A DNA stretch of 64,000 nucleotides. Source: Alternaria dauci (taxonomy: Eukaryota > Ascomycota > Dothideomycetes > Pleosporales > Pleosporaceae). The position numbers and the translations under genes are program-made. The stretch covers positions 2,542,001-2,606,000 of the forward strand of contig NC_091277.1 of the NCBI RefSeq assembly GCF_042100115.1, read 5' to 3'. Under the pieces are notes generated by a model, which worked only from the letters and a program-made list of their open reading frames with translations, did not search any database and was not told the origin of the DNA. This document shows positions 29,894 to 50,572 of the stretch, one piece after another (within the stretch, counting starts at the first letter, position 1; each line of letters opens with the position of its first letter).

Positions 29894-32800
29894 TCACAAT
29901 CGCCCATCCACATTTCCATACTCAGCAATCTCCACCTCGTTCAAATAACTCTTCGTCCTCACACTACTCCTCGCACTATCCGGCGCGACCAAACTCTGAC
30001 GCACGAGCCCTGCTCTTCTCGGATCCAACATCGCATTCGCCGACGCAGGCCTAAAGACCCGATTACTTTCATGCCCGTAATAAGAATACCGCGCGGGCCG
30101 CTTGCCTCCTCTAGCAGAAGGCGATATTGCCCTCACATGGGCACCCGAGTACGATTTTGTTGGACGAGTGATTGCAGGAACTGGCCAGTCGTCTGTATCA
30201 GAATGTTCGTACTTGACTGACGATCCAGACGACTCGTGATGCGCATCCCACTCTTCGTGTTCCCAGATGGGGTCAGAGTATGTGGACGGCGAGCGTGAGG
30301 GTTCGTCAACGTAGACGGAAGAGAACGACGTTGTTGCCGATGTCCGCCTCGGCGCATAGGGGCGCGGGTGCATCATCTTCTCCATTTGCGGGTCGAACAT
30401 GAGACTCGATGCAGTGTCCCGCTGCTGCTGTGGCTGCGTACGACGGAGCGACAGCATGCGTGCCGGGTTCCGTGGTGGTGGCGTCCGCTTCTCTAGGTCA
30501 AGCATTTCGTAGCAAGCCTTGCCAATCCAGAGCATCTGCTCGTGCTCGCGCAGGTAGCGCTCTCCACCAAAAGACTTTTGAACGATGTCGCGTGCCATCA
30601 TGCCTAGCTTCCGTCGATGTTCAGACTTCTCGTACATGCGGCGCGTGATGATTTCCACGTCCTTGGGCGTTGGCTTGTGCGGCAAGATTGGCGCCGCTAC
30701 CCCAGGCCCATCGTCAGCATACTGTGCCCACTCATCCAGCATGGCCAACAGGTTGATTTGTGCGCGTGCCATGCCATATGCATCGTTGGGTGCCACAACT
30801 TCACTATAGCGTCTGCCATCATCGGGATCGGTAAGCACGCGAAGCGATGCACCGACATCAGTGCAAACAACTGGCGCTCCAGTCAGTGCCGCTTCTCCGA
30901 GCGCAAGCGGCAGTCCTTCTGAGACAGAGGAGTTGAGGAATAGCCAAGTGTTTGCGAGGACCATTGCTGGATCCGCTGTACCGCGCATTGCCACGTTCTG
31001 TCCAAGACCTTTGCATGCCAAGATTTCTTGACACTCAGACGAGTAGACGGGCGATTTGTTGAGAGCTCCATAGATGTCGAGTTTGTAGTCCTTGAAACCC
31101 CACTCGTTGGTGATGATGTCCGCCGCAAGAAGAGCGGTCTTGATATCTTTGGCAAACCAAACATGGGAGAGCATAGTCACGGTCGGCGTCTTCGTTTTGA
31201 TCTCAGTTACCGGGGCGAACTTCGTCATGTCGGTGATGCCATTGACAATCGGGTCGACCTTTCGGCGGAACACGTTGCGGTGTGTAAGTTGACCCTTGGC
31301 GCTACCGATCTCCACTTCCCAGCCGGGGTTGAAGAAATCTTGCCCATGGGGTTAGCAATACTGTTTGTAAGATCTGGAAAGATGTACATACCTGCGCAGG
31401 GAAGGATCTGATCGGCGTGATGCAAGATCAGGCAAGATGTCAGCTTCATCAGACCCAACAGCGAATTTCGAATGAACGGCGGCAGAGTGCACATCGCGGA
31501 CGAGAGGTAGAGATTGGTCTCGCGCCACGAGATGGCATGATCCCAAATCTGGAGCGTACAGTTGCGCTTCAGCTTGCAGACGATTCCATATGAGGCTGAA
31601 ACGCTGTGGTGCGAGGCCTGGAACACATGCGGGATCTTGTCTGGGATGGGAATGGAGAAGATAAATAGATCTGTGAAAGTCAGCTTAGTCGCCGTCTACG
31701 GAGAGTTCCAACTTACACCGAAACCACAGCTCTAGCGCCGTATCGAAGTGTCCAAGTGTCGGAAGCTCAGTGCGGAACCACTCTGATGGTGGCTGTGCGT
31801 TTGGCATATCATCAGCAAGCCAAAGGTTTCTCCAAGTATCCTTGACTATATCGCTCGTCCAGACCTCTTTCCAGTGACGCGAGTCTTGGAAGTAAGTATT
31901 CAGGTTGACCAAAGCACGCGTCGCTTGCTTGACATCTGCTGATGTCATCGTTGTAGCACGTGCGCCGCGGACGAGAGCGGTCAAGGTTGGAATGAAGTTT
32001 GTCTCGATATCCGATATCGTTGCAGCTTTGACCAGATGGTCGACCTCACTGTCTAGCTTGTTGGTGAACATGCCGTGGTTTGGATGCATAAAGTCCAGTC
32101 CCCATAACGGTATAATCTTTAGCGATTCGACGTTCTCTTCGGTCTGGTGCTTTGGTAAGCCAAAGTCGTTGGCTGATTCAACCACCATGTGCCATTTGAT
32201 TGTGCGCAGGTTGTTGATGAGATCTCGCCGACATGCTGAGACACCACCGCCTTCGTTTGGCCATGTACCAGTATCGACAGCGATGACGTGCAGGTTGCGA
32301 TCGGTGTCGCGCTGTAATGCTTTAGTCCTGGTGAAAATGACGGCATCTCCGCCCTGACCAAAACTAAACAAGTCGCTTATTCGTATGGCAAGAGGCGTCC
32401 ATGCGCTAATGTCGCTTGTTAGATCTGAGCTTGCCATAATGGCGTCTGCATGCAAGGCCAGATAATCCTCAGCCTTGATGAGACTACCACGATCTCTTCG
32501 TCTCCAGTATGGCCGTAGGAGAGCCTCTCTCCGAATCAGCTCCTCATCAACCCATCGAATGACAACGCCATCCAGATCGTTCCGCTTCTTCCAAGCTTTC
32601 CAGAGTTGTGATCGAGCTCTAGATGTGGAGATCTCTTGTTGTTTGACGTTTGTTCCGAGGAGTCGGCTGAAGAAAGTGGCAGTAGGAGACTTGAATGCAA
32701 GCAAAGGGTTCTCGTCGGCAAACGTACACCGAGTTGGCTTCTTCAGTACGCCGAGCCAATCGTGACGAATCATATCTGGGGTATCGACTGGCACACCGTT

Positions 32801-35800
32801 GAGCTTAGTGGTGATGGTTGGATGGAACTTGTGATCATAAAGCCATGAACATTCGTACACGTCGGCTCCTTGAACGAACGTCGCTTCATGAACGCGAGGA
32901 GTGGGTATCCAGCGCTCCATCTTTTCGGCATGACGAACGGGAGGCGCACACCAGCTGACGTTAGCCGACATGTGTGGAAGCACGAATTCTGCACGAAGAA
33001 GTTCGTCATCATACTTGGCGTTCTTTCGGTAATGGTACTTAAATCGGACCAAGTTGTCATGGCTGATGTAGCTTCCAGATTCAATGTGACCCTTGCGGTT
33101 GTATATGACCTTGGCGCCTTGGTTCTGGCCTTTGCGGCAGGTTCTTCCCAACGGCACCCTGCTTTTCTTGACTTTTGAGATCTTCCTCTTTTGTTCCGGC
33201 TGCTTCGATGCATACTCGTAAACAAACTCATTAGCCACAATGCCATTCTTGTACTCTTCACGTAACGTGATGCGCATCTCTTTGTCGTAGTATGTAACTC
33301 GGAGATGACCCCACGTTGGTTCCAGCTCCAGATTTCCCTGATAGAACATCAATTTGACTCCGCCATCTATGCCAGGGTGAATGAAGGCTGTCTCTGTGTC
33401 TCCGTAGCTCCGGATGACCAAGCGATTCTTCTTTTGAATGATCAAACTACCTTTTACGGTGCCGGCAAGACCTGCAATATCCTTGCGCCGATGGTACAAA
33501 AAGAAAGGTAGAGCGACTGACATCGCAGCCCGACTGTAGATCCACAAGCCTGTCAGAATGAAGGTAGCGAGTTTGGCTACTGGGCGTGGTGTACGTATCA
33601 AGGCTCCGTTCAATTCACGCTGATATTCAGGGTCGGCCATGCATGCGAGGAAGAAGAATTTGACCCAGGTCCCGGCAGAGTGGTAGACATAGGCGATTGG
33701 CAGACGTACATACTCGGTGAATATGCTAAGAATTGAACCCGCTGAGCGATTCAGAACGGGATGGTACGCTTCATGGATGTCCGCGGTCATTTGCTGATAC
33801 TCTTTTTTGGCGAGAGCCTGATCGCCTCGGTTCTTGAAGAAGCTGTGCTTGATAATGGCTAGGTACGCGCCCAGGTCATATCGTGCGATGCATGACAGGA
33901 TTGTACATGAGCTTTCCACTGGAACATTGGCATTGATCCATGCCATTTCCGTATTTGTATAGGGTGCTCGTATGCCAACGCACCGTCGGAGGAAGAGCCG
34001 ACGAATCTCTAGTGGAAGCTCGTCCCACTGCGTGTCGCAATCAAACCCCATGCACAGGTTTCGCAAGAGGTCTTTCTTGAAACCAAGTTCAAAGTCCAAA
34101 GCCTTGGGTCCTACAGTCAATTCCGGCATTGACCGCTTGCAACATTCGGATACGGCGTAAAAGCTAACGTCGTTCCCTCGGCAAGCAAGCATAGATTCCG
34201 TGAGCTGGGCTTGGTAGTGCGGCATACCGAACATGGTCTCTGAACAAGCGTGTAGCAATGTTTCTGCAATGATCGCACAGTTGCTGCTCACGTTCGTTTG
34301 CCTGGAGCCCTTTGCTTCCGAAGCTATGTAAAGAGTCAGACGTCCGCCTACGTAATGCGAAATTGCCCGAAGGTCGGTGTCCACTCCAGCCACAGTCTGC
34401 ATCGGAACGATGAAGATTTTGATGTTGTCGCTCTTCCAAGCCAGAACGATACGCTGTGCCAGAAAGGGCATAGTCGGAAATGCTTGCATTGCAAGCCTGG
34501 AGAGGTTCTCATGGGTACACGATAGTAGTATAGCGCAGATCTGATCGCCGGGTTGTCCAGTGGCACATACACGGAACCTGCTTTCCTTCGGGGCGGCTCG
34601 CAGCTTGCTGCAATAGGCGTGAAGCTCGCTTTGGCTGAATTCGGCATCACCACCAGTGCCGTTGTAGGCATGGTACCTTTCGTCGATGGTAGACTGATCT
34701 TCACCTCGAGATGCGATGCGGCTCAAGCTAGACGTTTCGGTCGAGCTCAGGGACTGCTTGCTCTGCTCATGGTTCGGAAAGAAGCTAGATAACCAGGTGC
34801 GCACACGGAGCAGATCAGGCATGCCTAGCTTGGCAGTTCGAAATGAAAGTAAGGCTGCTGTCCAGGTAGACACAGCAAGAGCAACGATCCTGTTATACAT
34901 AAAGCCCGGCAGCAGGGTGATGAGAATGTTACCGGTTACAAAACCTAGAATGACTGCTGCCAACAGTGGCATCAGTGCGTGTGGGCCTGAGAAAATCTTG
35001 TTGTACTGGTAAAGGAGTAGACCACTGTACGCGCCAACGTAGCTTATGAATACGACGAGGCCAACTGCTGAGCCGTTGAAGATCCACACCAGAGCAGCAC
35101 ATAGCGCCAGTGCCCAAACATGGACGCCAATAAACCTGCATAGAGTGCTGAGATACAGATGTCGCCTGAACTTCAAATCGTTGGCTTTGGCCTGCTTGAT
35201 CTCGTGCGCGTCCTTGATCGAGACTGGTGACATTTGCTCTGACATTGTGTGGAGGTGTTGAGCTTTGTAATCCAGTAGCACTGCTCCAATGAGGTAATAC
35301 GCCAGACCGAAACCGACTGACAAACGGAGTGTCTTGTCGTCTATAGATGATAGTAATCCCGCTAGTTCGCCGCCGGGTCGCTCGGTGCCGCGCAAAAGAT
35401 CGAGCCATCTATCCATGAGTGCGACGAGGAAGTAGAGAACCCCGCAGTAGATCTCATCTCCAGCAGTCCGCCAATGTATGAAGGAATTATGAAGTCGAAT
35501 GCCTTTTTGCGACTGTTGCATGCTTTCGAGAGCCACCTGCGTTTCGAGATTCCAAGTTGAACTGTATGGAATTGGTCGCCTAGTATCCGTAATGCGAGCA
35601 TACCAGTCCAATAAGAAGAGTGTCGAGTCCCAACAATCTGCAAGTCGTCTGACAAAGGTATCCTGCGTAGGCTTCTGCCAAATGGTGCGTCCTTTCTCCT
35701 TCATGACGGCGTCATGTAAGGCTGTGCGACAAAGCCCCAAGATCGCTGGCTCACTCATACCATGGAACATGTCTTTCTCGCTAGTGGTTGTCTCTGAAGG

Positions 35801-38800
35801 GGGAGCGTTAGATTCGCGGACACTCAACGCAGTACTGGGCCCTTTGCTGGAACGATCTACTGCGGCCCGGTTAGCGTCTGTCACCGAACCATGGTCTGTG
35901 TACGTACTGGCAGAATGCTGCCCCTTGACTGACCGCTCAACGTACCAAGCCTTGATGTCAGCGTCGTTGAGTGTCTTGATGTTGTGATACCAAGTCACCC
36001 ATTGAGTCGCTACGTGTCGGGTACCGAGAATCAGCAAAGTGACAAATATGTACAGGACCGCAGGATAAATGTAGATGTCGTAGCCAGGAACGAAGATCGT
36101 TAAAACCGGGGAGACTGTCAATGTCGGTACCACCATGATGATGATTTTACGACCATTCAAGAAACTGGACCCCGGAATCTGATAAGTGGAGAGAACAGCA
36201 AGCACTGTCAGATATGTCGTGAGTCCAAAAAGGTACAAGACAAACACCGCTCCAGGCCCTGGGCCTGCGACAGCTGAGATGACGATGAAGCCGAGGAAGC
36301 AGCCAGCAAGAGTGAATGCGAGACCACCGACCAGCCGAGTCAGCACGAACATGTTGGCGGCTGAGAATGCCATCGAGATGAGGTAATAGGTGCCGCCGAT
36401 AGAGATCCAGGTTCCAATTGCGCCAGAGAGGAGCAATGAACACATGAGCGCCAGCGTAGCATAGTATCGCTGCTCTTCTTCCATTCGTACACTGAGATAC
36501 AGCCCATGGCCAGTGGTTGATAGTAGAATGATGTCTGTCGTTGTTAGCAAGCGATCGAAACGGCCATAGCATCATATGCTCACCAACAAGTGCCGGGATT
36601 GCAAAGACGCTCAGGAAAGTGAAGCGACGGTATGCAGGCATTACCGAAGGCTTCTGATCCGGGTCGATGTCGGTTTGAGCTGCAGCGTAGGCGGAAGCGA
36701 ACGACGGCGCATTGAAAAGCCACATTGGAGGCTGATGTTCCTCCTGGTTGTAGTAGTTCCTGTGCTTCTGTGATAGCAGTATTCCAATGTCGCTGGGCTT
36801 GATGTCAAAGTACGCTTCGCATCTTGATCCTAACGCAAACAGCTCTGCAAAGGCTGCACTCTGGTCTGAGTACTGGTTGAAGAGCGGGTTCCGGTCCGAT
36901 ACCTCAATGTATAATTCTTCGAATCCAGCTTTCCTTGCGGCGCAAAAGATGCAGAAAAGTACAAAGTCAGCGGCTGAATCAAGAGTTCCCCGGTTGGTAA
37001 TATTGGCGATGGAAGAAGTAATGGCGTCTAGCTTCTCAAAGTCTCGGGACCACAGTATACTGTCAAGCACATGCGCGACTTCCCTGAAAAGACACAGCGC
37101 ATCGTGTCTGTTGAGAGTGGGTAGTCGAGATAGCCGGTACCATTTGAGTTTTGCGTTGACTAGTTGTTCGTCCGTGATGTCGCCGCTGATGTAGTCCACA
37201 TTGCTGAGCTTCTTCAATTGATGATATGTAGGTATGTCGATCAGCAACTCTTCGCAACGTTCACGAATGGCTGAAAGCAAAGAGCAATCCTGGTCCCATT
37301 CTGAGTATTGCAAGTGCTGCAAATACAGAAGCAGATCGGAAGAAGAGAGTAGATCCAGATCTTGTCGTAGCCTCTCAGGCAGTCGCTCTGGTGAAAAAGA
37401 CCCAGCGGTGAACTCCGTCAGGCCGTACTCTGCAAGGAAGCACTGGTATCTGGAAAAGCCTACCTTGCTCAGGTGTGTATGGAGCAAAACCGCGCCAATG
37501 TCTTGGACGGACTTGGACATGTAGATGATGACGGATTGGGTCCGCGGCTCCACTTCCCAGACTGCCCAGAACTGAGCACCGCTCGGTGTGTGAAACCCAG
37601 AATCAAGCGCAGAATATACTTGTAGCTGGTAGGCGTCCTCTGCATCGTCGTTGGTCCGAGCCAGTGCCTCTACGAGTTTTGAGATAGCGATTCTTGACGT
37701 TGGCAGGGAATCCAAAAAGTGACTACTGCTGTGACAATAACCACGAAGGGTTTCTGCGACAGAATGTAGTTGTGCCGTAGGGAGTCGACTCAGCAGTTTC
37801 AGATCCCGCAGACGTCGTTGTGAGTCGAGAACCCGAGAGAAGTCACCTCTTGACGCATCTAATCCAATCGGGAAGCATCCCAATGAATCGTACAGCGATC
37901 CGTTGAAGGAGCAAGACAGTGGGTTACTGGCATGCTTCTCCCTAGTCATTGTCCATTCCATCCCTGATGATGTTGATGATGTAGATGTCCGCGAAAGCAA
38001 TACTCCATTCTCATCAATCTCAGGGTAGTGTATGATGTCCGTGGATATGCTAGAGGCGTCGTCATCGTCCGAGTCTGTTGCGTCGAGCCCAGTGAGCGTA
38101 TCGGCGAGGAAAGGAAAGATCTCCTGCAACGGAAGATAGTCGTCGATGATACTCGAAAAGCCAGGAGAAAGCTATGGAGATTTAGCTCATGATTCGCAAG
38201 TCGAGGAAGCAAACTTACTGTGCGTGCGGCTCGATATTTTTCGTGAACGTCCATCACTCTTCGTTGCTTGAGCCATTGGAAAGCTGCCAAAGGCTCTTGA
38301 CAATGAACAATGGCGTCGATGGTGCGTAGGGCTCGTCGACGTGGGAAGTATGGGATGGCGCCATGGTAGCTACACCACATGTGCGCTCTTCTCACAACGG
38401 CGTGCGAAAGGTTGGCATCGTCTTCAACCGTGTCCCACATCATCGTCAGGAATGGCCGTTGGCAGGCTTGAGATACAAAGGATTTTGTTGTAGTCTTCAT
38501 CTTGTCCATGTTGAAGAAGTCTCGGCGCTCTCCGTTCAACATGATCGTCCCATTGCGAACCACGAAGCCAGCGAAGAGCCCAACATCAAGCTTCTCGATG
38601 CTATCCAGGAACTCTGGAGCTTCCACTTCCAGGTAGACTTCTAGACCATAGGCAATGAGAAGCTTGGTCAAGCCATTGAGTAAAGGCACGGCAATGCGGT
38701 CTCGCCATCCAGAAACAAGCACGCCAGTAAAGTATCTCCGCTGGTCCGGCTGTCGTATGGTTCGCTGGAGAGTCCACGAAAGGACGTACACTGCTCGCGC

Positions 38801-39334
38801 CATGTCCAGCTCACTCGTCGTGGCAAACGTGATGATCTGAGCGAGATCAAGCCGTGCAATGATATGAGGTCCCATAGGAACGCTATCGTCGCTAACAGCG
38901 TCCAAGATGCCAGGCTCGCAATAGTCCAACACTACAATCTCCCATTGCGACAATATCCGCGCTTCCTCTGGTGTGACCGGGGTGTTTAGAAGGCCCAGGT
39001 ATACGCCAAAGGACGAAGGTTTTTCGAGAAGAGTATGGGTTTTGCGGACGACGCTCGGGCTGTGCGATAGGAGATGGATCCGTTCTTGTACCGATCGCGG
39101 TAAACCATGCTCGTTGTTGTTCACCTAAGCATGTTGTAAGCGTGGACTGGGTAGTATATGTTCAGATCATACCTTCAACAACGTCCGGATGGCACGATAA
39201 GAATACCAAAGGAACGCAACAACTCCCACAAGCCCACTGACACCGACGATAGCAACGAGCGCCCATTGCCACCACTCCTGGAATACTGAACCACTATCAA
39301 AGGCTTGAATGCCTAGGATGTCCGGCGCCGGCAT
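29894..39334 (-). CDS. gtb3: Giant membrane GT4 glycosyltransferase, galactosaminogalactan synthase Gtb3
   Basis: Six exons (39334-39173, 39124-38219, 38171-36584, 36534-31717, 31670-31392, 31338-29894) give 3,065 residues. All five introns are 46-53 bp with GTRAG-type donors and keep frame. One helix lies at residues 25-48. A soluble region (80-345) follows, then helix clusters near 870-1090, 1297-1460 and 1844-1910. The C-terminal third is a PelF-like GT4 enzyme: FSFGQGGDAV and DTGTWPNEGGG near 2250-2300, FHHAD-type HHADQILPC, and the E-x7-E motif SEGLPLALGEA near 2729. Such proteins polymerise GalNAc/Gal chains in the GAG pathway. The tail is Ser/Arg-rich. It is divergent from agd3. Confidence 0.88.
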
Positions 39335-40867
39335 AGTGTCTGTGTGATCCTACCAAAGGCAGCTCTGATATCCTCAATAGCAACTCCACGCTCGACCGAA
39401 TACAGCAACGACTGCTCCTTGATAGAGAAAAGCTAATGAGAAATATGCCCAAGGGTCGTGTTCCGATCCATAACAAGGGCGTCAGAGTAGGGAGGATGTG
39501 ATATTCTGGCAAGACAATCAGTGACTAGGGAAAGATGCACTTAACCCCCATATGAGCTATCTCATCGGCTGTCAAAAAGCCACTTTGAACAAAACAAAGA
39601 ATTACAGCATATGCTGTGTTCATACAGTCATGTGTAAGCTGTTGATCTGCGAATCGCATTAGCATACACGGTTGGTTAGCCAGTGCGAGAGATCCACCAC
39701 TGCAAGACGAACGGCAGTGGAGAAGTGCAGCCATGCTTCGAGAATGCTGCAATCCAGCTCTTGGCCGCCACGAATAGCATTGGAGCGGCAATGACCAGCG
39801 AGTGAGTTGCAGCGCGAAGCCGTCTGGCCGGGCATTGGCAAAAGCGATGACAGGGAACGCTGGCCGCGTCCAGGAGCCAGTGGCCATCTATCCCGAACAG
39901 CGAAGCGTGACTATATTGAGACTAGATCAAAGACTATTCACATGTCGTCGATGAGGCAACGTCAGCGAAGGAGGGTGTCGTGATGATGCGACAAGAGTGG
40001 TGGATGAGGCAAGATGTGACGAGGCTGGAGTTCCGGGGGTTCGGCAGCAAGTGTCCGTGCATGCTCATCATCGCTGCCTCAACTGTGCCTCCTCCGGCAC
40101 CGCTTTTAGCCTAGCGTCTCCGATACTGCAGCTTTAATATCAGACTTCATTTATCACGGCATCTTCGTCGGCCTTGTCTCCGAGGCACATGCAATGCAAT
40201 GCACCTGCCGCAGATGAAGTCTGGGCCGGTAATTGCTTACTCAATATGGCCAGGCTGCGGGCAGACGCGTGCCAGGCTAGAAGACACCTGGCGCGCCACC
40301 CACAACAATATCCTTACACACTCTGGTATTTACGGCCCCCAATTCACGGCTGCCATGGTCTCCAGCCGTGCGCACTTGGAGGGTGCAGCGGCAGTGACTT
40401 TCGGCTCTACTTACGACGGGAACGACCAGTGGCTTAGTAGGCAAAAGGCGCGGCGAAGTCACGAGTCCGGTAATACTCTGAGATCGTTGCCATACATTGC
40501 TCTCACATGGCAAAAGTCACAGCACTACCACTCCTCGAGTACAAGGACCAGCCAAGACCCTGACTAACTATATGGCTATACGGGCATGTTACGTACGCGA
40601 AGTTGTCCAGAAGTACGGCAACCCGTATCCAAAGCCTCTGATCGCACTATGCACCGCGCCATGTTCTGCATCAAGCTGAGCTGAAGGTAGGATTCTGACT
40701 GCTGAGGCTAGGAAGGGAGAAAATCAATAGTCCCTTGATCATCTACTGCATCTGGGCCACCGCCCTCCCAGTGGCGTATGAGATGATATCTGCCGAGACT
40801 TCTTTATTAAGTCGTCCAGGTTCCTCAAAAAAGTCTCGTTAGCACGTTGTGCACTTCGCGTCTCGCC
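39335..40867. promoter_or_regulatory. Bidirectional promoter region between gtb3 and agd3
   Basis: 1.5 kb without a supported gene between the divergent starts of two genes of one pathway. Several short open frames on both strands show no family pattern. Shared control of the two genes is plausible from layout. Confidence 0.45.
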
Positions 40868-43134
40868 ATGGCGCCTTTCGGTCTATCGTCACTGCGAGCA
40901 TGCGCACTCACATGCCTCTTTTTCTTCTTGCAGCATGCTCTAGCGTACGTGGGAGGTGCTACGGTCTCTAGTACGATCTTGGTCATTGCACGGGACTCCA
41001 CATCGGCCATCAATAGTGCTGCACTCGGCCTTCAGGGTTACGGCATTCCTTATGAGATCTTCACTGTGCCTCAGGCTGGCATCGCGAATCTACCCCTACT
41101 CAATTCCTCGGCTACATATGGCAACTATGGTGGCATTGTTACCGTAAGCGAAGTGGGATACAACTACGGAGATTTCTATTACAGCGCCCTTACTAGGAGC
41201 CAATGGAATGATCTGTATGCATATCAGACCAACTTCGGTGTGCGCATGGTCCGTCTCGATGTATTCCCCACTACCGAATTTGGAGTCTTGAGCAACGGTG
41301 GCAATCTGAACGATGAGCCGGTATCCTTCACAAACACCACCGGATTTGCCACGGCCAACCTGAAGCCGTAAGTTTTGAAGCTCGCAACATTCAGATCCAT
41401 ACTGACTTGGACGACAGCAATGTAGACGTGAGCATTGCAAACATCTACCACACTCCTGCAACAATCGTAAATTCCTCGATTGCATGGGAATTTGCCAAGT
41501 TTTCGGGCAGTGGGACTGCTGCAGTCGTCAATCAGATAGGTTCTCGTCAACAGATGGTATGGTTTTTGCCCTTTGCCCTAGATTGGGCACCCTCGAGCAA
41601 TATCTTGCAACACGCATGGATTACCTGGCTCACAAGAGGTCTCTTCGTTGGCTTCAGAAGAATCTATTTCAGCACGCAGGTGGATGACATGTTCCTGGAG
41701 ACTACCCTATACCGACCTGCAGGCGTTAATTTCCGCACCAAGCCCGAAGATCTTTCCATGCATGTCACTTGGCAGGCCGAGTTGAATGCGAGGATGCCTG
41801 CAGGGTCCGAGTTCTTCATAGAGATTGGACACAACGGCAATGGCGATATAGAAGCCGCCACAAACACAGCTGAGGGTGAAAGCCTCTGTGATCCTTCAAA
41901 CGCGATTGAATACCGTGATCAACCGGATGGCAGCCCGGAATACAAGAAGCCTCCCGGTACTGGCACCAACATATGGCCTGCTACGCCTTCTCAGTATACA
42001 TGGAGCTTGGAGTGTGCGGAGTTGGATGAACTACAGAACTGGTTCGCTGATGAGGCGCAACGCGACGCCTTCGCGCACCTCTCGCATACCTTGTACGTCT
42101 CGTATATATTCAGTCTTTGCACCACTGACTCCAAACCAGTTCCCACGCCGATCTGACCAACGCGACGTACTCCGATGCATCAAAAGAGATTTCGTTCAAC
42201 CAAGCCTGGCTGAAACAGGTCGGCTTCGATGCCGCTCAGCGCTGGAGCGGGAAGGGCATTATCCCGCCTGCTATCACTGGTCTATACAACGCAGATGCCA
42301 TCAAGGGCTGGATGGATAACGGGATCACCAACGTGGTGGGCGACAATACGCGCCCACTGCTCCGCAATCAGCAAAACACCTTCTGGCCGTTGACCACCAC
42401 TGTTGAAAACAACGGCTACGCAGGGCTCAATGTCATGCCTCGTTGGGCGACACTGATATACTACAACTGCGATTCCCCGGCTTGTACATTGCAAGAGTGG
42501 ATCGACACATCAGCAGGCAGGGGGACATTTGACGATCTCATGAACAACTCTCGAGACACGGCAATGCGCAATCTCTTCGCTTTGCACTGGGACCCGTAAG
42601 CGCAGCACATCTCACGCAACACAGAGCCATACTGATTTGTAATCTAGGTACATGTTCCACCAGGCCAATATGCGCGTCAACGACGTTCCAACCACCACCG
42701 TGAATGGGAAAAGCGGACAGTATTCGCTACTCATGACGTGGATCGAGGTCATTTCCGCTGAGATGATGCGCTTGTATGTATATGTTGCTCAACCGGAAAA
42801 GCTCCGACTAACACGCCATAGAACTACCTGGCCCCTCAAGACACTCAAACATGATGATATCGCGCAGCAATTCATTAATCGACAAACTCGCGACTTATGC
42901 CGACCGAGCTTGACCTGGACAGCATCTGCCGACGGCGCCAATATTGAACATGTCAATGTATACACGGCAGGAGGCAACAGTTGCGGGACGACGATACCCA
43001 TCACTGTTCCAAGAGAGCTGGAAAGCACGACTGGTGCAACAAGAGAGCAGCTTGGAAGCGACCCACTTACACTATGGGTGTCGATGAGCGGCGCAAGCAG
43101 GCAGTACAAGTTCTCAGAGCCCATTCCCCTGTAA
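40868..43134 (+). CDS. agd3: Secreted galactosaminogalactan deacetylase Agd3 (CE18)
   Basis: Five exons (40868-41367, 41418-42092, 42140-42595, 42648-42773, 42822-43134) encode 689 residues. The introns are 47-52 bp; the last (48 bp) has no stop, but splicing joins EMMRL to TTWPLKTLKHDD. The start is the second ATG-type codon in the frame and the first true ATG (MAPFGLSSLRACAL). It begins a signal peptide. A metal-site Asp pair occurs in STQVDDMFLE near residue 256, and His residues in HLSHTFSHADL near 390, as in CE4/CE18 deacetylases. Known Agd3 removes N-acetyl groups from GalNAc in secreted GAG, making the polymer cationic and adhesive. Confidence 0.9.
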
Positions 43135-43957
43135 AGCTTAGCATAACTATTGAAAAGCATGGTCAAACCCGCCATCCCGTTTTTCATCTTCATTATTCAT
43201 CTTTTAGCGCTGGCCAAGCGTCTCTAACCTTAGGTACTTACCGCTTTTTTGTTTACTTTTACCCTGCCCTGCATACGTGCTCACCACTGAGAGCCTGCGG
43301 GATTCAGGCGGCCATTGCCGATGCCTGGTCGAACCCCACACTCGCATAGCCACATTCCCAATGAAGATGAATAAGGCAACCAACTTTGCGGGGCCACAGC
43401 GCCTCAGCTCGCTATACGGATTTTGTACCAACTTCCATATCATCGAAGCTACAGTGTGACCTCTTTTCTGATATATACACCTATACCATCTACTACGCTT
43501 ACCCTGTGCCCTAGATATATCACTTAGCTAGCGTCTATCAGTGATTATTTGCTCTCTACTACCTGATCTTCTAGTCGGTAGCATGTTCCCGCGGCACGCC
43601 ACACCCGCAATATTGCTGCATAGGCGCTACACCAGATGTAGCTACTGTCTGTACTAGACACAACAACTTTATATTAACTGCATATGCAACCCGGCACGAT
43701 GCGCTGCCCCGCTCGCAACGCGTCTTCTTGCGGAAGTTCTGGACTGTTGGACTTGGCATGGGTCTGGAGGCTGTTGCGCGCGAGTTATGGTCGCATTGAA
43801 GTCCACAGGTACGCCTTGCTTGGGTATACGAAGACTTTGTTGAAAGGAATCCTCGCGTCTGAGGTGCGTCGAGCAGCACCTCAGCTGGCGGGGCGTTCGT
43901 TACCTAGCAAACCCCGTTCTTTCCAATCCTTCCAGCGACCAATAACACACTCACGCC
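43135..43957. other. Intergenic region between agd3 and ega3
   Basis: About 820 bp; no gene or repeat seen. It should hold the agd3 terminator and the ega3 promoter. Confidence 0.4.
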
Positions 43958-45031
43958 ATGGACGCGAAACCCAAATCGCGCCGGCCGTGGCCTTTGCGAC
44001 GCAAGATTCTTTTCGCGGTTCTCATCGCGATCTTGATTCTCGCACTCGGTCTAGGACTAGGTCTGGGTCTTACCTTGGGACGTGGCGACGATAACGAAGA
44101 TGACAACACCTCTACTCCGACACCTCTCCCATCACCGAATACCACAGTACCATGGGCACCATCCGTATCGGATACCTGGCAGATTATCCTTTCACATCCG
44201 CCCGTTCTCTCATCCTCTGACACTAATACAACCCCCAACGTCAGCATCTTCGACATCGACCTGTTCGACACCCCAATCGAGACGATAAGACAGCTCCATG
44301 CTATGGGCAAGAGAGTGATATGTTACTTTAGCGCAGGAAGCTACGAAGACTGGCGGCCCGATGCTTCAGAATTCACGGAAGAAGATCTAGGACACGACCT
44401 CGACGGGTGGCCAGGCGAGAAATGGCTGAATTTAGGTAGTGAGAACGTGCGGAGGATTATGAAGAGTAGAATAGATCTGGCCAAGAGTAAAGAGTGCGAT
44501 GGTGTTGATCCAGATAATGTTGATGCTTATGTGAGTACCTCGTTTCACCATTGGAACTATAGTACCTACAACGCCGTCGCTGTGCTAATCGAGACGCAGC
44601 AAAACGACAACGGCCTCTCCCTCACTCAAAACGATTCAATCGCCTACATGCAGTTTCTCTCCGAGATAACAGCGCCTCTGAACCTCACACTTGGACTCAA
44701 AAACGCCGGAGACATCATACCAGCCATCCTCCCCATCGTACATTTTAGCGTCAACGAAGAATGTGTAAAGTACAGTGAGTGCACCACCTTCGCGCCCTTC
44801 ATCGCAGCGGGGAAGCCCGTGTTCCACATCGAGTATCCGGATGGAGCAGGTGCGGAACAAGGATTGCAAGATGATGCGGTGGCGCAGTCGTGTGACAGAA
44901 CGGGGAGTGGAGAAGGGAGCGATGGGTTTAGTACGGTGTTGAAGAAGATGGAGTTGGATGGGTGGGTGGAGTACTGTGATCGACAGGTTGAGGTTACAGA
45001 TGTAGATGAGAGGCTTGGCAATCACGATTAG
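43958..45031 (+). CDS. ega3: Endo-alpha-1,4-galactosaminidase Ega3 (GH114), type II membrane protein
   Basis: Exons 43958-44530 and 44600-45031 give 334 residues. The 69 bp intron (GTGAGT...GCAG) has no stop in frame; splicing restores VDPDNVDAYQNDNGLSL. A basic N-terminus (MDAKPKSRRPWPLRRK) and one helix (residues 16-38) make a signal anchor, followed by an Asp/Thr/Pro stalk. The GH114 TIM barrel shows VSIFDIDLFDT, GKRVICYFSAGSYEDWRPD, GWPGEKWLN, CDGVDPDNVDAY (catalytic Asp region) and a later acidic strand near NEECVKYSEC. The family cleaves de-N-acetylated galactosamine stretches in GAG and Pel-like polymers. Confidence 0.92.
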   Translation: MDAKPKSRRPWPLRRKILFAVLIAILILALGLGLGLGLTLGRGDDNEDDNTSTPTPLPSPNTTVPWAPSVSDTWQIILSHPPVLSSSDTNTTPNVSIFDIDLFDTPIETIRQLHAMGKRVICYFSAGSYEDWRPDASEFTEEDLGHDLDGWPGEKWLNLGSENVRRIMKSRIDLAKSKECDGVDPDNVDAYVSTSFHHWNYSTYNAVAVLIETQQNDNGLSLTQNDSIAYMQFLSEITAPLNLTLGLKNAGDIIPAILPIVHFSVNEECVKYSECTTFAPFIAAGKPVFHIEYPDGAGAEQGLQDDAVAQSCDRTGSGEGSDGFSTVLKKMELDGWVEYCDRQVEVTDVDERLGNHD

Positions 45032-48000
45032 AAGCTGAAAGCCATGCGCGATGTATAGAAAATTTTGATTCTCATGACTTGCAATGGTCCCTTCGAAGTG
45101 GCTGGACACTGCCTCGTGCGCGTCGGAGGCGAGTGATTGAAGTACCCAGGTAGTAGTCACGAGAGGACTTGCGAGGCTTGCTGATATAGCCTCGCTCCTA
45201 CTGCGGCACCCAGAGTGTGATGTAAGATCATCTCAGCACCAAATGGATCGGCATAAGTCTCAGAGATCTCGAACGTCGACATTCCGGTGAGCTGAACTCT
45301 AAGGCGAGGCTTCATTCCTGCATATCCTTCTTACCCCAGCCTTGCGGCCACGGGTTTGTGTAACACACAGTACAGGTAACCTCGGATCATCCGACTTGGC
45401 ATTTGGCCGCCACAAAATCTGGAGAAGCATTGCATATACTACTTCGTTGAACCTACGCGGAGACGAGTCATGGCCGGTGATCTGACATAGATGGCATGTG
45501 TTTGAGCATCACTAGCTCAGTGGTGGAATATGGCATCACCAGGTTCTGCCCTTTCGACCCATCAAGCAGGAATTATGCACTCAATCGCGGTACGGGTTCT
45601 GTATCCCAAGGTATAGCTACCGACCGGTTGAATACGATCTAATATCCAATGCTGTGTGAGGTAGAAAAGCTGGGGGTGGTTGCGGTAGCTATGCTCGGCA
45701 TTAAACTTGCTTATTCTTGTGGCCACAGTCGATATTGAATGTCTCCTGCCTGAGTGAGAATAGAGTTTTCTTCGAACCGGTTTACCATACAGCTGACGTG
45801 GCATCAAAAAAATGACGTGCTTGTGCCAGCTTCATGACTCAGTCTTCTCCCAAGATTCTGGTATGCAATGGTGCATTAGTCGCCAGATGCACAGCGCAAA
45901 AGTATTGCAGGCGCGTAGGTTCCCCATTTGTGGAAATCCCCGCTCCCAAGGCGCGAATGCACAACGTGGCCAGGATCGCAATGCACATTCGGTAGACGAC
46001 ACCAAAAACATGGTTTGCCAATGAGTCGCGTTTTTTTGGGGCCGTTTGGACCGACGTTGAAGACATTCGGGTCGATGCCGACCTTCTTGAACCAGCAGAC
46101 CCGAAGACGCGTCACATAATCCTTCCCTTGCGTGTAAGCCACAATAGGCGGCCGATCCGTGGTATCGGATACAATACGAGTTCTTGAAAATCTGGAGACG
46201 GATGTGTGTATGCGATCATGCACGTTCCTATTGCCTCTTCGGTAGCGGGGTCATGATGCACATGAAGGATCCGCTTTGTGTAACTGAAACATTAGCACGA
46301 GGCCGGAAAGACTCTGTGGCATACCGAGATGGTTGTCAAGCGATGAGTTTACTCGTGCGCATGATCTCGTTGGTTCCTTATACCAATACGAGTATACGAC
46401 TGGGTAAGCTAATGTCGTCATCCAGTGAGGCCGAATACTCAAAGACGCAATATTTTCCTGTCTCGCTGTACAGCGGTAAAATCTTGGCCTGCCGATATCT
46501 TGGAAATTTGTAAGTAGCTATGCATGTCAGACTTTGCATGACAGGAGTGGCCCTTCGCTTCCATGCGCCTCTGTCATTGGTGGTGAAATCTAGGACTTGG
46601 CATCTTCCCCGCGGACCTGGTCGATCGGAAACGTAGCGGAGGAGCCCTTCCAATACAACCAAAGCAAGATGACGTGATACAAGGCTTTAGTATACACTGC
46701 TGAAGTGAAGGATCGGGGGTGACATGGAAAGGTTGAAACTCCGCGGCACAAGAGTCATTGCGGAAATACCTCGGGCTTCCACCCGTTCGTGCAGCATGTA
46801 CAAGGTACTTCTACGCAGAGCCGCCGGCACTTAGCCTCTATTGTATCGCGAAGCACCCCCGGCATTTCTCCAAGGATGACATACCTCAAGGAAAGTGCCT
46901 CAAATTTCGCAGCTCGACACATTGCCTGCAAAGAGGCGGAGGACGGCATGGATCCATGCAAGGCGAAGCAGACATTGCATACCGAAATGAGGGCCAAGGT
47001 TGAAATAGAGTGTGCATGCAGCCCTAGTGCAGGATAAAAGGCTTAGCATTTCGATCCGGGGTGACGCGCAGGGATTGGACGAGCTAGATCTGCCGTCTAA
47101 AGCGGCAACAGAGTACGGGTCGGGGTAATGTTGAAGCCAACTATATTTGGACTTTTTAGTTCTCCGAATTAACAGGTCAGATTTGATGATGATCGTTGCT
47201 TGTTTAGAGGCGGCGTTGTTGTGTTGAAAAAGTGCTTCTTCGGCTGACCCTGGATTGAGCCGACGGCATGGCGGACCGCTTGAGTTAGAGGAGAAGCTTG
47301 TGCATTGCGTGTGTTACCTTTGGTAGTCTTCACTCGGACGCATTGGTCGGCCTTTCCCCGGGGAACTCACAGTGGTGCATGCTAGCGGTCAAAGACATAT
47401 GTGTCGTGCGTAAATGGGGCGATTGATCCCTTGTCCTCCGCTGTCTTCAGTACTAGAGCTGTCATCTTTAGTTCAACCAAGCAGCCAAGGCTTTGGCAAA
47501 CGCAGACATAACGCCATTAACCTCGACATAGTTTGAGCTAGCGCTCAGCTACATGCTACAGCCTACAGCTAGAAGTTGCAGTAGCGTGCTAGCTATGCCA
47601 GCGATTGTCAGATCTGGTACAGGATGCACAAGAAGTGCAAGTTTACCCGATCACACAATGCCATCCCCGCGAGGATCTCGGTACGCATAATTGTCCAATT
47701 GGAGAACGAATTTCCGACCACAATGGTCAAGTCCGATACCTTGAGTGATACTTCATCGAGATAAAGAGGCCCTGGAAGAGCGCCAGGATTATAAATCGAG
47801 GGCAAAGTCAGCCTTCTGCTCAAGCAACTGCCGCAGTTGGAGGTTGGGTATCTCGGTACGAGTAAGTTGCTCGGAAATTCGTGGTAGAGTGGATGGCACC
47901 GCAACAAGGATCCAGAAGAGCCAGCTTCCACATTGGTTCGTGCTACCGATGCATAGGAAGACGGACGCAGCTTACCAATATAACTGGCCTTTAGTCCGAG

Positions 48001-49080
48001 GCTGGCTTCAGCTGCTTGAGAGATACAGTCAAGATACACAGCATGCTCCGAAGAGTGCTGTGTAGGTCCCTCACCGACAGAGATGCCGCTCAACGCTAGT
48101 GAAGGATTACATGCCCCCTAGAACCAATAGGCAACGATGTCGCCGAGTACAGAATCCAAGTTGCTGGTAGACCACGTGGTTCCTACATAATCGATAGTGC
48201 GTACATTGCTGAGCAGGTTGAGCGCCTCGATGGCCGATGAGTACTCTGCGTTCGGCAATGCGCCGTCCCCGGCCCTTTATGTATGTTGCTTGTAGGTGCA
48301 CACTGTACTTGAGGGAACGAAAATGCTCTTGGGGTGGCGGATATCGCTAACCACGGCGTGACGGGTAACAACGACAGGACGGTACCGTATCATACACGTC
48401 GTGAGAGGGATCTCATGTGTCTGCTGAGGGGCAAACGTAGGGTTGAAGTATCACCAAGTCGTGCCCGTTCAGAGCTCAACTCTGAGCGCGGCCAACTAAA
48501 AGCCCATGACGGAATATTGGTCTCGGCGGAGATCATTCGATGAAGAATAGCACCTAGGGAGGTGCAGCGATCGGGTCCTGCCGGACGGCAATGTGTAATG
48601 AATCCTTCAGTGGTGTGTTTGGGGACCGAGAACCTGTTTGACGCATGCCGGGACCGGGTATCGAAAGAAGCCTCGCGGTATGCCCACGTTGGATCTCTTG
48701 TGGCCCAGATGATGGTGTTTTGGGAGATTAGAAGACGCGGCAATGCAACCCACACGGGTACGCATTGCGCACTCGGCCATGCAAATTGTACAGGGATAGT
48801 TAGCGACGCGGGAGTATATTTTGAGGGTGCTAGACCTGAGGAGACTCCGAAACTGATGAGTCGGGATGAAGAGGCTGCATCGTGCCAAGCAACGTAAACA
48901 ATATTGATGGCGCAGGAAAAGTCAGACTCTGGCGCCTTCTGCCTAATTCATCATAAGTTGAGGCTATTGTTGAGTGGTGGCGCGTATAAAGATTTTCGGA
49001 CGTATCGAGAAAGGTAGCGCCGTAGAGATCAACAGGTTCACTCTTCTTCGTCATTCGCCAAGCAACCGTGTTTGTGTAAA
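45032..49080. other. Gene-poor 4 kb between ega3 and uge3, possible decayed genes
   Basis: No intact gene is supported. The longest frames are 161 codons (47608-48093, minus) and 121 codons (48390-48755, minus). A minus-strand piece at 46755-46997 reads KFEALS...MPGVLRDTIEAKCRRL, faintly like a HET-domain core. In related clusters sph3 lies in this neighbourhood, but I cannot find GH135 motifs here. A TATA box for uge3 (TATAAA) is at 48985-48990. Confidence 0.45.
48985..48990 (+). promoter_or_regulatory. TATA box of uge3
   Basis: TATAAA, 91 bp before the uge3 ATG at 49081. Confidence 0.45.
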
Positions 49081-50572
49081 ATGTCGTCATTCTCTTCGCA
49101 ATATTCGCCGTCGCCTTCTGTAACACCAGAGGTACCCAACACACCAGCGACTGAGCGATCTGTGCTATTCGACGACGAACTAGGTGCGGATCCTTTGGAC
49201 ATCGATGGATCTAACTCTGCCTTCATCATGGTCGTTGGCGGATTGGGGTACATCGGCTCGCATACGGTATTGGAACTGCTCAAGGAAGGCTATAATGTCC
49301 TGGTTATCGATGACTTGAGTAACTCGTACGAAGACGTCTTGACAAGAGTACGATCCCTTGCCGCGGAACACTGCGCTACGGAGGAGCATCGAATGCCAGC
49401 ACTGCACTTCCGTCAGCTGGATTACCGGAGCGCGCAGATGAAAACCGTGCTGGCCGACTATTCATCCTATTCGATCACCAACAAGCCAGCACTCACTGCA
49501 GCACGCTTTCCATACGCAACACTGCACAGAACGGATTCCGGCATCGATATGGAAATGGATGACACGCCAGAGCCTGTCGTTGAGCGACAATCCAGGATAT
49601 CAGGCGTCATCCATTTCGCAGCGTACAAGTCGGTGGAAGAGAGCATCCGAATGCCTTTGCGATACTACAACAACAACGTTTGCGGACTCGTTGACTTTCT
49701 GGCCCTGCTGGAAGAGTTCAACATCAAGAATTTTGTGTTTTCGTCTTCCGCAACGGTGTATGGCGAGGGTGCTAACTGCGGGCTGCCTCTCCGCGAAGAA
49801 CTTTGCGTCCATCACCCGGAGTCATTTGTGGAGAAGGATGGAACAGAACGTCGAGTATTACCGGGCGTCTTAGGTCTCACATCGCCTTACGGACGGTCGA
49901 AGTTTATGTGTGAATCCATACTGGCAGATCTGGCACTGTCCGACCCCACATGGTCCATAACCGCTTTGCGATACTTCAACCCGGTGTGTATTATCAATGA
50001 TCGAGGTGCGAAGATGAAACTAATGGCTCCAGGTTGGTTGTCACGAGTCTGGTATCCTAGGTGAAGATCCGCGGCAGAAACCAAGCAACCTGATTCCGGT
50101 CATCGCAACGGTCTTGACCGGCACCAAGCCGGTCCTAGACATCTTTGGTACCGACTGGAACACCCCAGACGGAACAGCCGTTCGAGATTTCATCCACGTA
50201 GTAGATTTGGCACGAGGCCACATTGCAGCTCTGGCAGCATCGACAGCCGGGCGCATCATCGCGCCTTTCAGGACGTATAACCTTGGTAAGTAACAACTCT
50301 TGAAAAGCACAACCCACTGCAAGGTCTCATACTGACCCCACCCAGGGACAGGGCGAGGACACACCGTTCGTGAAGTACTCCAGAGCTTGGAAGATGTCTC
50401 TCAACGGAAAATCCCTGCCAGAGAAGTGGGCCGGAGGGCGGGTGACGTCGGCTTCTGCGTGGCGGAGGTGCGACGTGCAGAGACTGAGCTGCAGTGGAAG
50501 GCCGAGAGGTCACTGAACGACTGCTCCGGTGATGTATGGAACTTTACCAAGGCTCGATGTCCAGAGTTGTAG
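49081..50572 (+). CDS. uge3: UDP-glucose/GlcNAc 4-epimerase Uge3
   Basis: Three exons (49081-49983, 50033-50285, 50346-50572) encode 460 residues. The introns are 49 bp (GTGTGT...CAG) and 60 bp (GTAAGT...CAG) and restore YFNPVGCHESGILGEDPRQ and TYNLGTGRGHTVRE. Motifs are the Rossmann GGLGYIGSH (53-61), SSSATVYG, catalytic SPYGRSK (Y-x3-K) and VRDFIHVVDLARGH. An N-terminal extension of about 48 residues and inserts after strand 3 make it longer than housekeeping GALE enzymes. In the GAG pathway Uge3 makes UDP-Gal and UDP-GalNAc. The enzyme looks complete. Its cluster position supports the uge3 call over the general galactose-pathway paralogue. Confidence 0.9.

What the first reader, a model, noticed from the sequence alone, without database searches (positions are those of the whole stretch)
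29894..50572. Galactosaminogalactan cluster with sph3 not visible
gtb3, agd3, ega3 and uge3 lie together and look intact. The fifth characterised member, the GH135 hydrolase sph3, needed for GAG production in Aspergillus fumigatus, is not found. Between ega3 and uge3 there are 4 kb without an intact gene. Either sph3 has moved, or it was lost and Ega3 alone supplies the hydrolase step.
Basis: partly seen in the sequence, partly recalled or inferred. Interest (0 to 1): 0.75.

Follow-up and report, generated by a model that had tools for sequence, protein, structure and literature searches.

The report
Decayed sph3 gene inside GAG cluster
In this fungus (probably an Alternaria) the gene for one of two enzymes that cut a sticky surface sugar polymer has rotted away in its old place while the four partner genes stay whole, a natural test of whether that enzyme is really needed.

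Summary
The four genes are real: gtb3, agd3, ega3 and uge3 all have open models. The sph3 that was 'not visible' appears with a profile search: a decayed GH135/sph3 relic on the minus strand, about 47,600-48,350 (perhaps to 48,454), between ega3 and uge3 as sph3 is in Aspergillus fumigatus. It has an in-frame stop, a change of reading frame and no acid at the catalytic positions. A relative's 149-aa GH135 protein (P0227), apparently on one contig with an Ega3 relative, is 74% identical to the relic's best piece and matches the relic best in this genome (64%). So sph3 was lost in place. It did not move: the two intact GH135 genes elsewhere are distant paralogues (39% and 31% to P0227) and seem to lack a membrane anchor. 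At the relic's rate of lesions the other four genes should carry about 60; none was seen, so they seem to have stayed under selection. Best reading: the polymer is still made without Sph3, Ega3 being the only anchored GH114/GH135 enzyme seen. That step is inference; nothing here measures polymer. A. fumigatus and Metarhizium need Sph3; Neurospora hyphae without it still adhere.

The parts
29894..39334 (-). gtb3: large glycosyltransferase with GT4-type C-terminal part, intact
   Evidence: open minimum-intron path of 3038 aa, 5 GT-AG introns; Glyco_trans_1_4 and Glycos_transf_1 in 29894-31315; its other ORFs scanned have no Pfam match
40868..43134 (+). agd3: GAG deacetylase, intact
   Evidence: 689 aa, 4 introns; 241 bits to Agd3 6nwz from one exon; that exon has one match in the genome
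43958..45031 (+). ega3: GH114 endo-galactosaminidase with an N-terminal hydrophobic anchor (my reading), intact
   Evidence: 334 aa, intron 44531-44599; PF03537; 279 bits to Ega3 6oj1, motifs DPDN and SVNE kept
48401..48454 (-). possible remnant of the sph3 first exon (family start motif), interrupted by a stop codon
   Evidence: best score in the gap (29.4, next 18.5), second of 127,894 positions in the window, the first (32.3) being elsewhere and presumably chance; moderate evidence only
48267..48344 (-). sph3 relic, piece in a different reading frame from the next one
   Evidence: 50% identity over 26 aa to P0227 residues 2-27
48121..48276 (-). sph3 relic, best preserved piece; ends at an in-frame stop at 48118-48120
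   Evidence: GH135 profile positions 44-89, E 2.6e-9; PF12138 34.5 bits; 74% to P0227
47611..48117 (-). sph3 relic, second piece: profile positions 100-141 and 142-182 with about 180 nt between them, just before the H-N-P-G motif
   Evidence: two stretches, 8.9 and 9.6 bits; PF12138 14.5 bits, under the cut-off; 60% over 72 aa to P0227
47552..47650 (-). possible remnant of the sph3 C-terminal part, in another frame; within noise
   Evidence: profile positions 198-214, 3.8 bits, E 0.27; colinear
49081..50572 (+). uge3: UDP-glucose/GlcNAc 4-epimerase, intact
   Evidence: about 460 aa, 2 introns, one of 24 open models; PF01370 Epimerase

Best explanation
The gap between ega3 and uge3 holds the rotted remains of sph3, lost in place by mutation. 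Shown: the relic is GH135, colinear with the family, broken by a stop codon and a frame change, without acidic residues at the catalytic positions, and by place and similarity the counterpart of a relative's GH135 protein. Shown by reading the sequence: the other four genes have open models over about 13.6 kb of coding sequence. Inferred: these four have been kept by selection after sph3 died, so the cluster still makes a Gal/GalNAc polymer. Uge3 makes the sugar nucleotides, Gtb3 polymerises and exports, Agd3 deacetylates, and Ega3 is the one membrane-anchored GH114/GH135 hydrolase seen. Sph3's cleavage of acetylated polymer is then either dispensable in this lineage or covered by Ega3.
For: PF12138 hit in the gap; colinear pieces, with reversed control. 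P0227 matches the relic at 64%, and the two intact GH135 genes at 39% and 31%. P0227 is closer to Aspergillus clavatus Sph3 5c5g (45.7%) than to the own L002 (38.1%, first part) and L001 (31.7%). Sph3 lies between uge3 and ega3 by A. fumigatus locus numbers (PMC4817252 passage). Open models of the four genes. Two lesions in the at most 447 nt of relic aligned to P0227 scale to about 61 in 13.6 kb; none seen. Sph3 is predicted to be membrane anchored (PMC8647848 passage), while L002 starts MSQFSQSKVLLPLYVYP and L001 is read as MSVLVPLYVYP with no leader; 4 of the 6 relatives printed start MSILLPLY. The N. crassa GH135 deletion stays adherent (PMC11356417 section 3.4).
Against: In A. fumigatus (passage) and Metarhizium robertsii loss of Sph3 abolishes GAG, so a dead sph3 could mean a dead pathway; the N. 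crassa paper's discussion itself calls the GH135 needed for GAG synthesis. No expression, staining or dN/dS was available. The tree does not resolve the relic and P0227 with 5c5g (65/30), so orthology rests on place and pairwise identity. One contig for P0227 and P0179 is inferred from equal lengths. The rate argument rests on two lesions, and a lesion hidden in one of the 12 assumed introns is not excluded.
Confidence: 0.75

Rival explanations
1. The whole pathway is dead or dying: sph3 was the first gene to go, no GAG is made, and the other four have not yet collected lesions.
For: Sph3 is needed for GAG in A. fumigatus (PMC8647848 passage) and Metarhizium (PMC8224951).
Against: The relic is far gone (two lesions in at most 447 nt and 35% protein difference from P0227 over 123 aa), while about 13.6 kb of the other genes can be read without any; Ega3 keeps its catalytic motifs.
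Confidence: 0.17
2. The sph3 function moved: one of the two intact GH135 genes elsewhere (C6:1359881-1360681 or C2:2022604-2023311) does the work.
For: Both are over the PF12138 cut-off (229 and 203 bits) and match Sph3 5c5g (151 and 104 bits); L001 keeps the acidic residues aligned with those of 5c5g.
Against: Neither is the gene that left the cluster (31% and 39% to P0227 against 64% for the relic). Neither shows a leader or membrane anchor in the frames printed. The L001 family is found in many named species of Pleosporales (the order of the species from my own knowledge). An unseen upstream exon is not excluded.
Confidence: 0.08

Closest known systems
Five-gene galactosaminogalactan cluster of Aspergillus fumigatus (uge3, sph3, ega3, agd3, gtb3)
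   Same: Four of five genes, with the sph3 remains between ega3 and uge3 as in A. fumigatus (locus numbers in the passage).
   Different: sph3 is a pseudogene; of the two anchored hydrolases only Ega3 remains.
GH135 hydrolase Sph3 (A. clavatus structure 5c5g)
   Same: The relic matches the GH135 profile, and P0227 is 45.7% identical to 5c5g over 116 aa.
   Different: The relic has a stop, a frame change and no acidic residue at the catalytic positions.
Neurospora crassa with GH135-1 (NCU05135) deleted (PMC11356417)
   Same: A GAG cluster still giving adhesion without its GH135 enzyme (section 3.4).
   Different: A laboratory deletion, not a natural loss; in the sections read (3.4 and the discussion) the polymer of that mutant was not analysed.

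Membership tests
Galactosaminogalactan biosynthetic cluster | glycosyltransferase gtb3, deacetylase agd3 and epimerase uge3 at one locus | tested here: met
Galactosaminogalactan biosynthetic cluster | either the hydrolase or the spherulin-like protein, the survey criterion of Lee et al. 2016 (PMC4817252 passage) | tested here: met
   Ega3 intact
Galactosaminogalactan biosynthetic cluster | all five genes, sph3 included, intact | tested here: not met
   sph3 is a relic
Galactosaminogalactan biosynthetic cluster | makes a Gal/GalNAc/GalN polymer | not testable with these tools
   needs staining and sugar analysis
GH135 Sph3 (the relic) | GH135 sequence profile | tested here: met
   PF12138 51 bits, cut-off 30.2; 34.5 bits for one piece alone, 14.5 for the other
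GH135 Sph3 (the relic) | acidic catalytic residues (Asp196/Glu222 of Sph3, passage of PMC12054363) | tested here: not met
   neither position is acidic in the relic; placed through the alignment, the numbering offset being my inference
GH135 Sph3 (the relic) | open reading frame | tested here: not met
   in-frame stop and frame change
Sph3 orthologue (L001, L002) | membrane anchor near the N terminus | tested here: not met
   no leader in the frames printed; no anchor-prediction program was run and upstream exons are not excluded
Sph3 orthologue (L001, L002) | best match in this genome to the GH135 of a relative that is apparently cluster-borne (P0227) | tested here: not met
   relic 64%, L002 39%, L001 31%

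The most novel reading that the evidence does not exclude
A lineage of Alternaria makes a galactosaminogalactan-type polymer without any anchored GH135 hydrolase: the step held to be essential in Aspergillus and Metarhizium has been bypassed naturally, by Ega3 or by a synthase that no longer needs trimming, and the loss is shared well beyond this strain.
Probability: 0.45. Interest if true: 0.7.

Novelty: new variant of a known kind. Interest (0 to 1): 0.5.

Why it matters
Why a polymer-cutting enzyme should be needed to make the polymer is open (PMC8647848 passage). A fungus that lost sph3 but kept the other four genes is a natural knockout that makes the question testable: if it still makes GAG, Sph3 is not a universal requirement, in line with the adhesive N. 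crassa mutant and against A. fumigatus and Metarhizium. It also warns that a gene counted as absent from a cluster may lie there as a relic, which tells loss from relocation.

Tried and rejected
Repeat-induced mutation as the cause of decay: not supported but not fully excluded. The first dinucleotide index (TpA/ApT) is 0.90 in the relic and 0.73 in the gap against 0.67 for the window, borderline in the relic by the usual limit of 0.89 (recalled); the second index is 1.28 and 1.25 against 1.20, not of that kind. No second copy of the gap was found. Other lost genes in the gap: of five further ORFs scanned with Pfam, four gave nothing and one a zinc-finger match under its cut-off (18.2 bits, cut-off 23.4), which I take as chance. 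Retrocopy: unlikely, as the relic has about 180 nt extra just before the H-N-P-G motif, where I read an intron in L002 (sequence printed, splice sites not tested) and where two relatives' models printed carry extra residues. Tree for orthology: relic piece with P0227 100/99, their place against 5c5g unresolved (65/30), L002 a long branch. Ega3 tree: window Ega3 groups with P0107 (named A. tenuissima) and P0160 at 94/91; no branch reached the program's star and most are open. Intact sph3 in other Alternaria: the piece search gave 1 protein from 4 candidates, without NCBI source, although Ega3 of A. tenuissima (84%), A. rosae (76%) and A. ethzedia (75%) is in the database; suggestive only, as the search needs shared exact words. 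Literature: searches (27 of 27 listed; 20 of 36; 6 of 6; 6 of 6; 7 of 7; 2 of 2; 12 of 1,435) listed no title or abstract start that reports natural sph3 loss or the Alternaria cluster. A Curvularia genome paper names only Agd3 of the GAG genes (PMC9259613, one passage). The library lacks most subscription papers; Bamford 2015 was not held. One search also gave agd3 and uge3 models with starts one base off and ega3 without its intron; one search replaced these three, with intron windows that I chose.

Full report
What is there. The window is part of contig C6 of a 34.9 Mb, 10-contig genome. The closest named proteins are from Alternaria: the GH135 at locus L001 is 91% identical to A. infectoria and 89% to A. 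rosae, and Ega3 is 84% identical to A. tenuissima. The species is not known. The 334-aa Ega3 model is as long as the A. tenuissima protein. Agd3 and Ega3 find their Aspergillus counterparts in the PDB. Ega3 has a hydrophobic N-terminal stretch and keeps the two motifs that I take to hold the Asp189 and Glu247 named in PMC12054363 (passage).

The missing gene is not missing but dead. A whole-genome search with the GH135 family PF12138 gave three places. One, 51 bits against a cut-off of 30.2, is window 47692-48270 minus, inside the supposed empty 4 kb. A profile built of intact GH135 proteins places the pieces in order along the minus strand: positions 44-89 at 48276-48121, and 100-141 and 142-182 within 48117-47611; positions 198-214 at 47650-47552 are colinear but within noise. 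Reversed pieces, as a control, scored no better than E 3; one forward plus-strand piece reached E 0.037. Upstream, 48344-48267 continues the similarity in another frame, and the family's start motif may survive at 48454-48401 with a stop in it (moderate evidence). About 180 nt separate the two halves of the second piece just before the H-N-P-G motif, where I read an intron in the paralogue L002 (sequence, untested). The positions of the two catalytic acids of Sph3 (Asp196/Glu222, passage) are no longer acidic.

Why it is sph3. In A. fumigatus the locus numbers run uge3 07910, sph3 07900, ega3 07890 (PMC4817252 passage), so the relic lies where sph3 belongs. A search with the best relic piece alone (52 residues) gave one protein from four candidates: P0227, 149 aa, 74% identical. 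It is only a part: it keeps the acidic residues it covers, and the catalytic Glu lies beyond its end. Its longest contig, 146,379 bases, and its sources equal those of P0179, a GH114 relative 77% identical to 59% of this Ega3; I infer one contig. In this genome P0227 matches the relic at 64%, then L002 at 39% and L001 at 31%. Among the six intact proteins that it matched locally, P0227 is nearest to Aspergillus Sph3 5c5g, 45.7%. A tree joins relic and P0227 (100/99) but leaves their place against 5c5g unresolved (65/30).

Did it move? The two intact GH135 genes, C6:1359881-1360681 and C2:2022604-2023311, are not the missing gene. The first belongs to a family found in many named species (106 proteins listed, fragments and unnamed proteins included). 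Both seem to start at the barrel's first strand with no leader (the first exon of L001 is my reading), whereas Sph3 is predicted to be membrane anchored (PMC8647848 passage). No anchor-prediction program was run, and an unseen upstream exon is not excluded.

What it means. Over the 447 nt of relic aligned to P0227, part of which may be intron, there are two lesions, one stop and one frame change. The four intact genes have about 4,520 codons, so at that rate about 61 lesions would be expected if they had been free of selection for as long; none was seen. This is a rough estimate from two events, and a lesion could hide inside one of the 12 assumed introns, but the contrast is large. I infer that the cluster stayed useful after sph3 died. 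Published deletions disagree on whether that is possible: A. fumigatus and Metarhizium mutants without Sph3 make no GAG (passages, section), while N. crassa hyphae without GH135-1 stay adherent (section 3.4), although that paper's discussion still calls the enzyme needed. Lee et al. (2016) accepted clusters with either the hydrolase or the spherulin (passage), so clusters short of one were allowed for. Ega3-type enzymes cut deacetylated and Sph3 acetylated polymer (passages), so if Ega3 substitutes it must act after Agd3. A second GH114 gene, which looks secreted, is a further candidate.

How far the loss extends is open. No protein with an NCBI name answered the relic search, although Ega3 proteins of A. 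tenuissima, A. rosae and A. ethzedia, as close as P0179 or closer over the first exon (88.0, 82.6 and 81.5% against 80.7%), are in the database. This hints at a loss shared by several Alternaria, but the search depends on exact shared words and cannot show absence.

Noticed in passing
G000:C6:562023-562807 (L005, L007): A second GH114 gene with an apparent signal peptide and a cysteine-rich, CBM1-like tail (my reading of the sequence; no domain search run), so probably a secreted, polymer-binding galactosaminidase outside the cluster.
   Followed up: partly
G000:C6:1359881-1360681 (L001) and G000:C2:2022604-2023311 (L002): Two intact GH135 genes whose products seem to lack an export signal; the L001 family is found in many named species, so an intracellular GH135 of unknown task may be common.
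   Followed up: partly
G000:C7:2214217-2214975 (L014): A second UDP-glucose 4-epimerase-like gene, up to 56% identical to uge3 in its best stretch.
   Followed up: no
P0078 and P0081 (Zopfia, Pleomassaria): Each of these two species has a second GH135, 45% and 42% identical to L001, besides its L001-type protein.
   Followed up: partly
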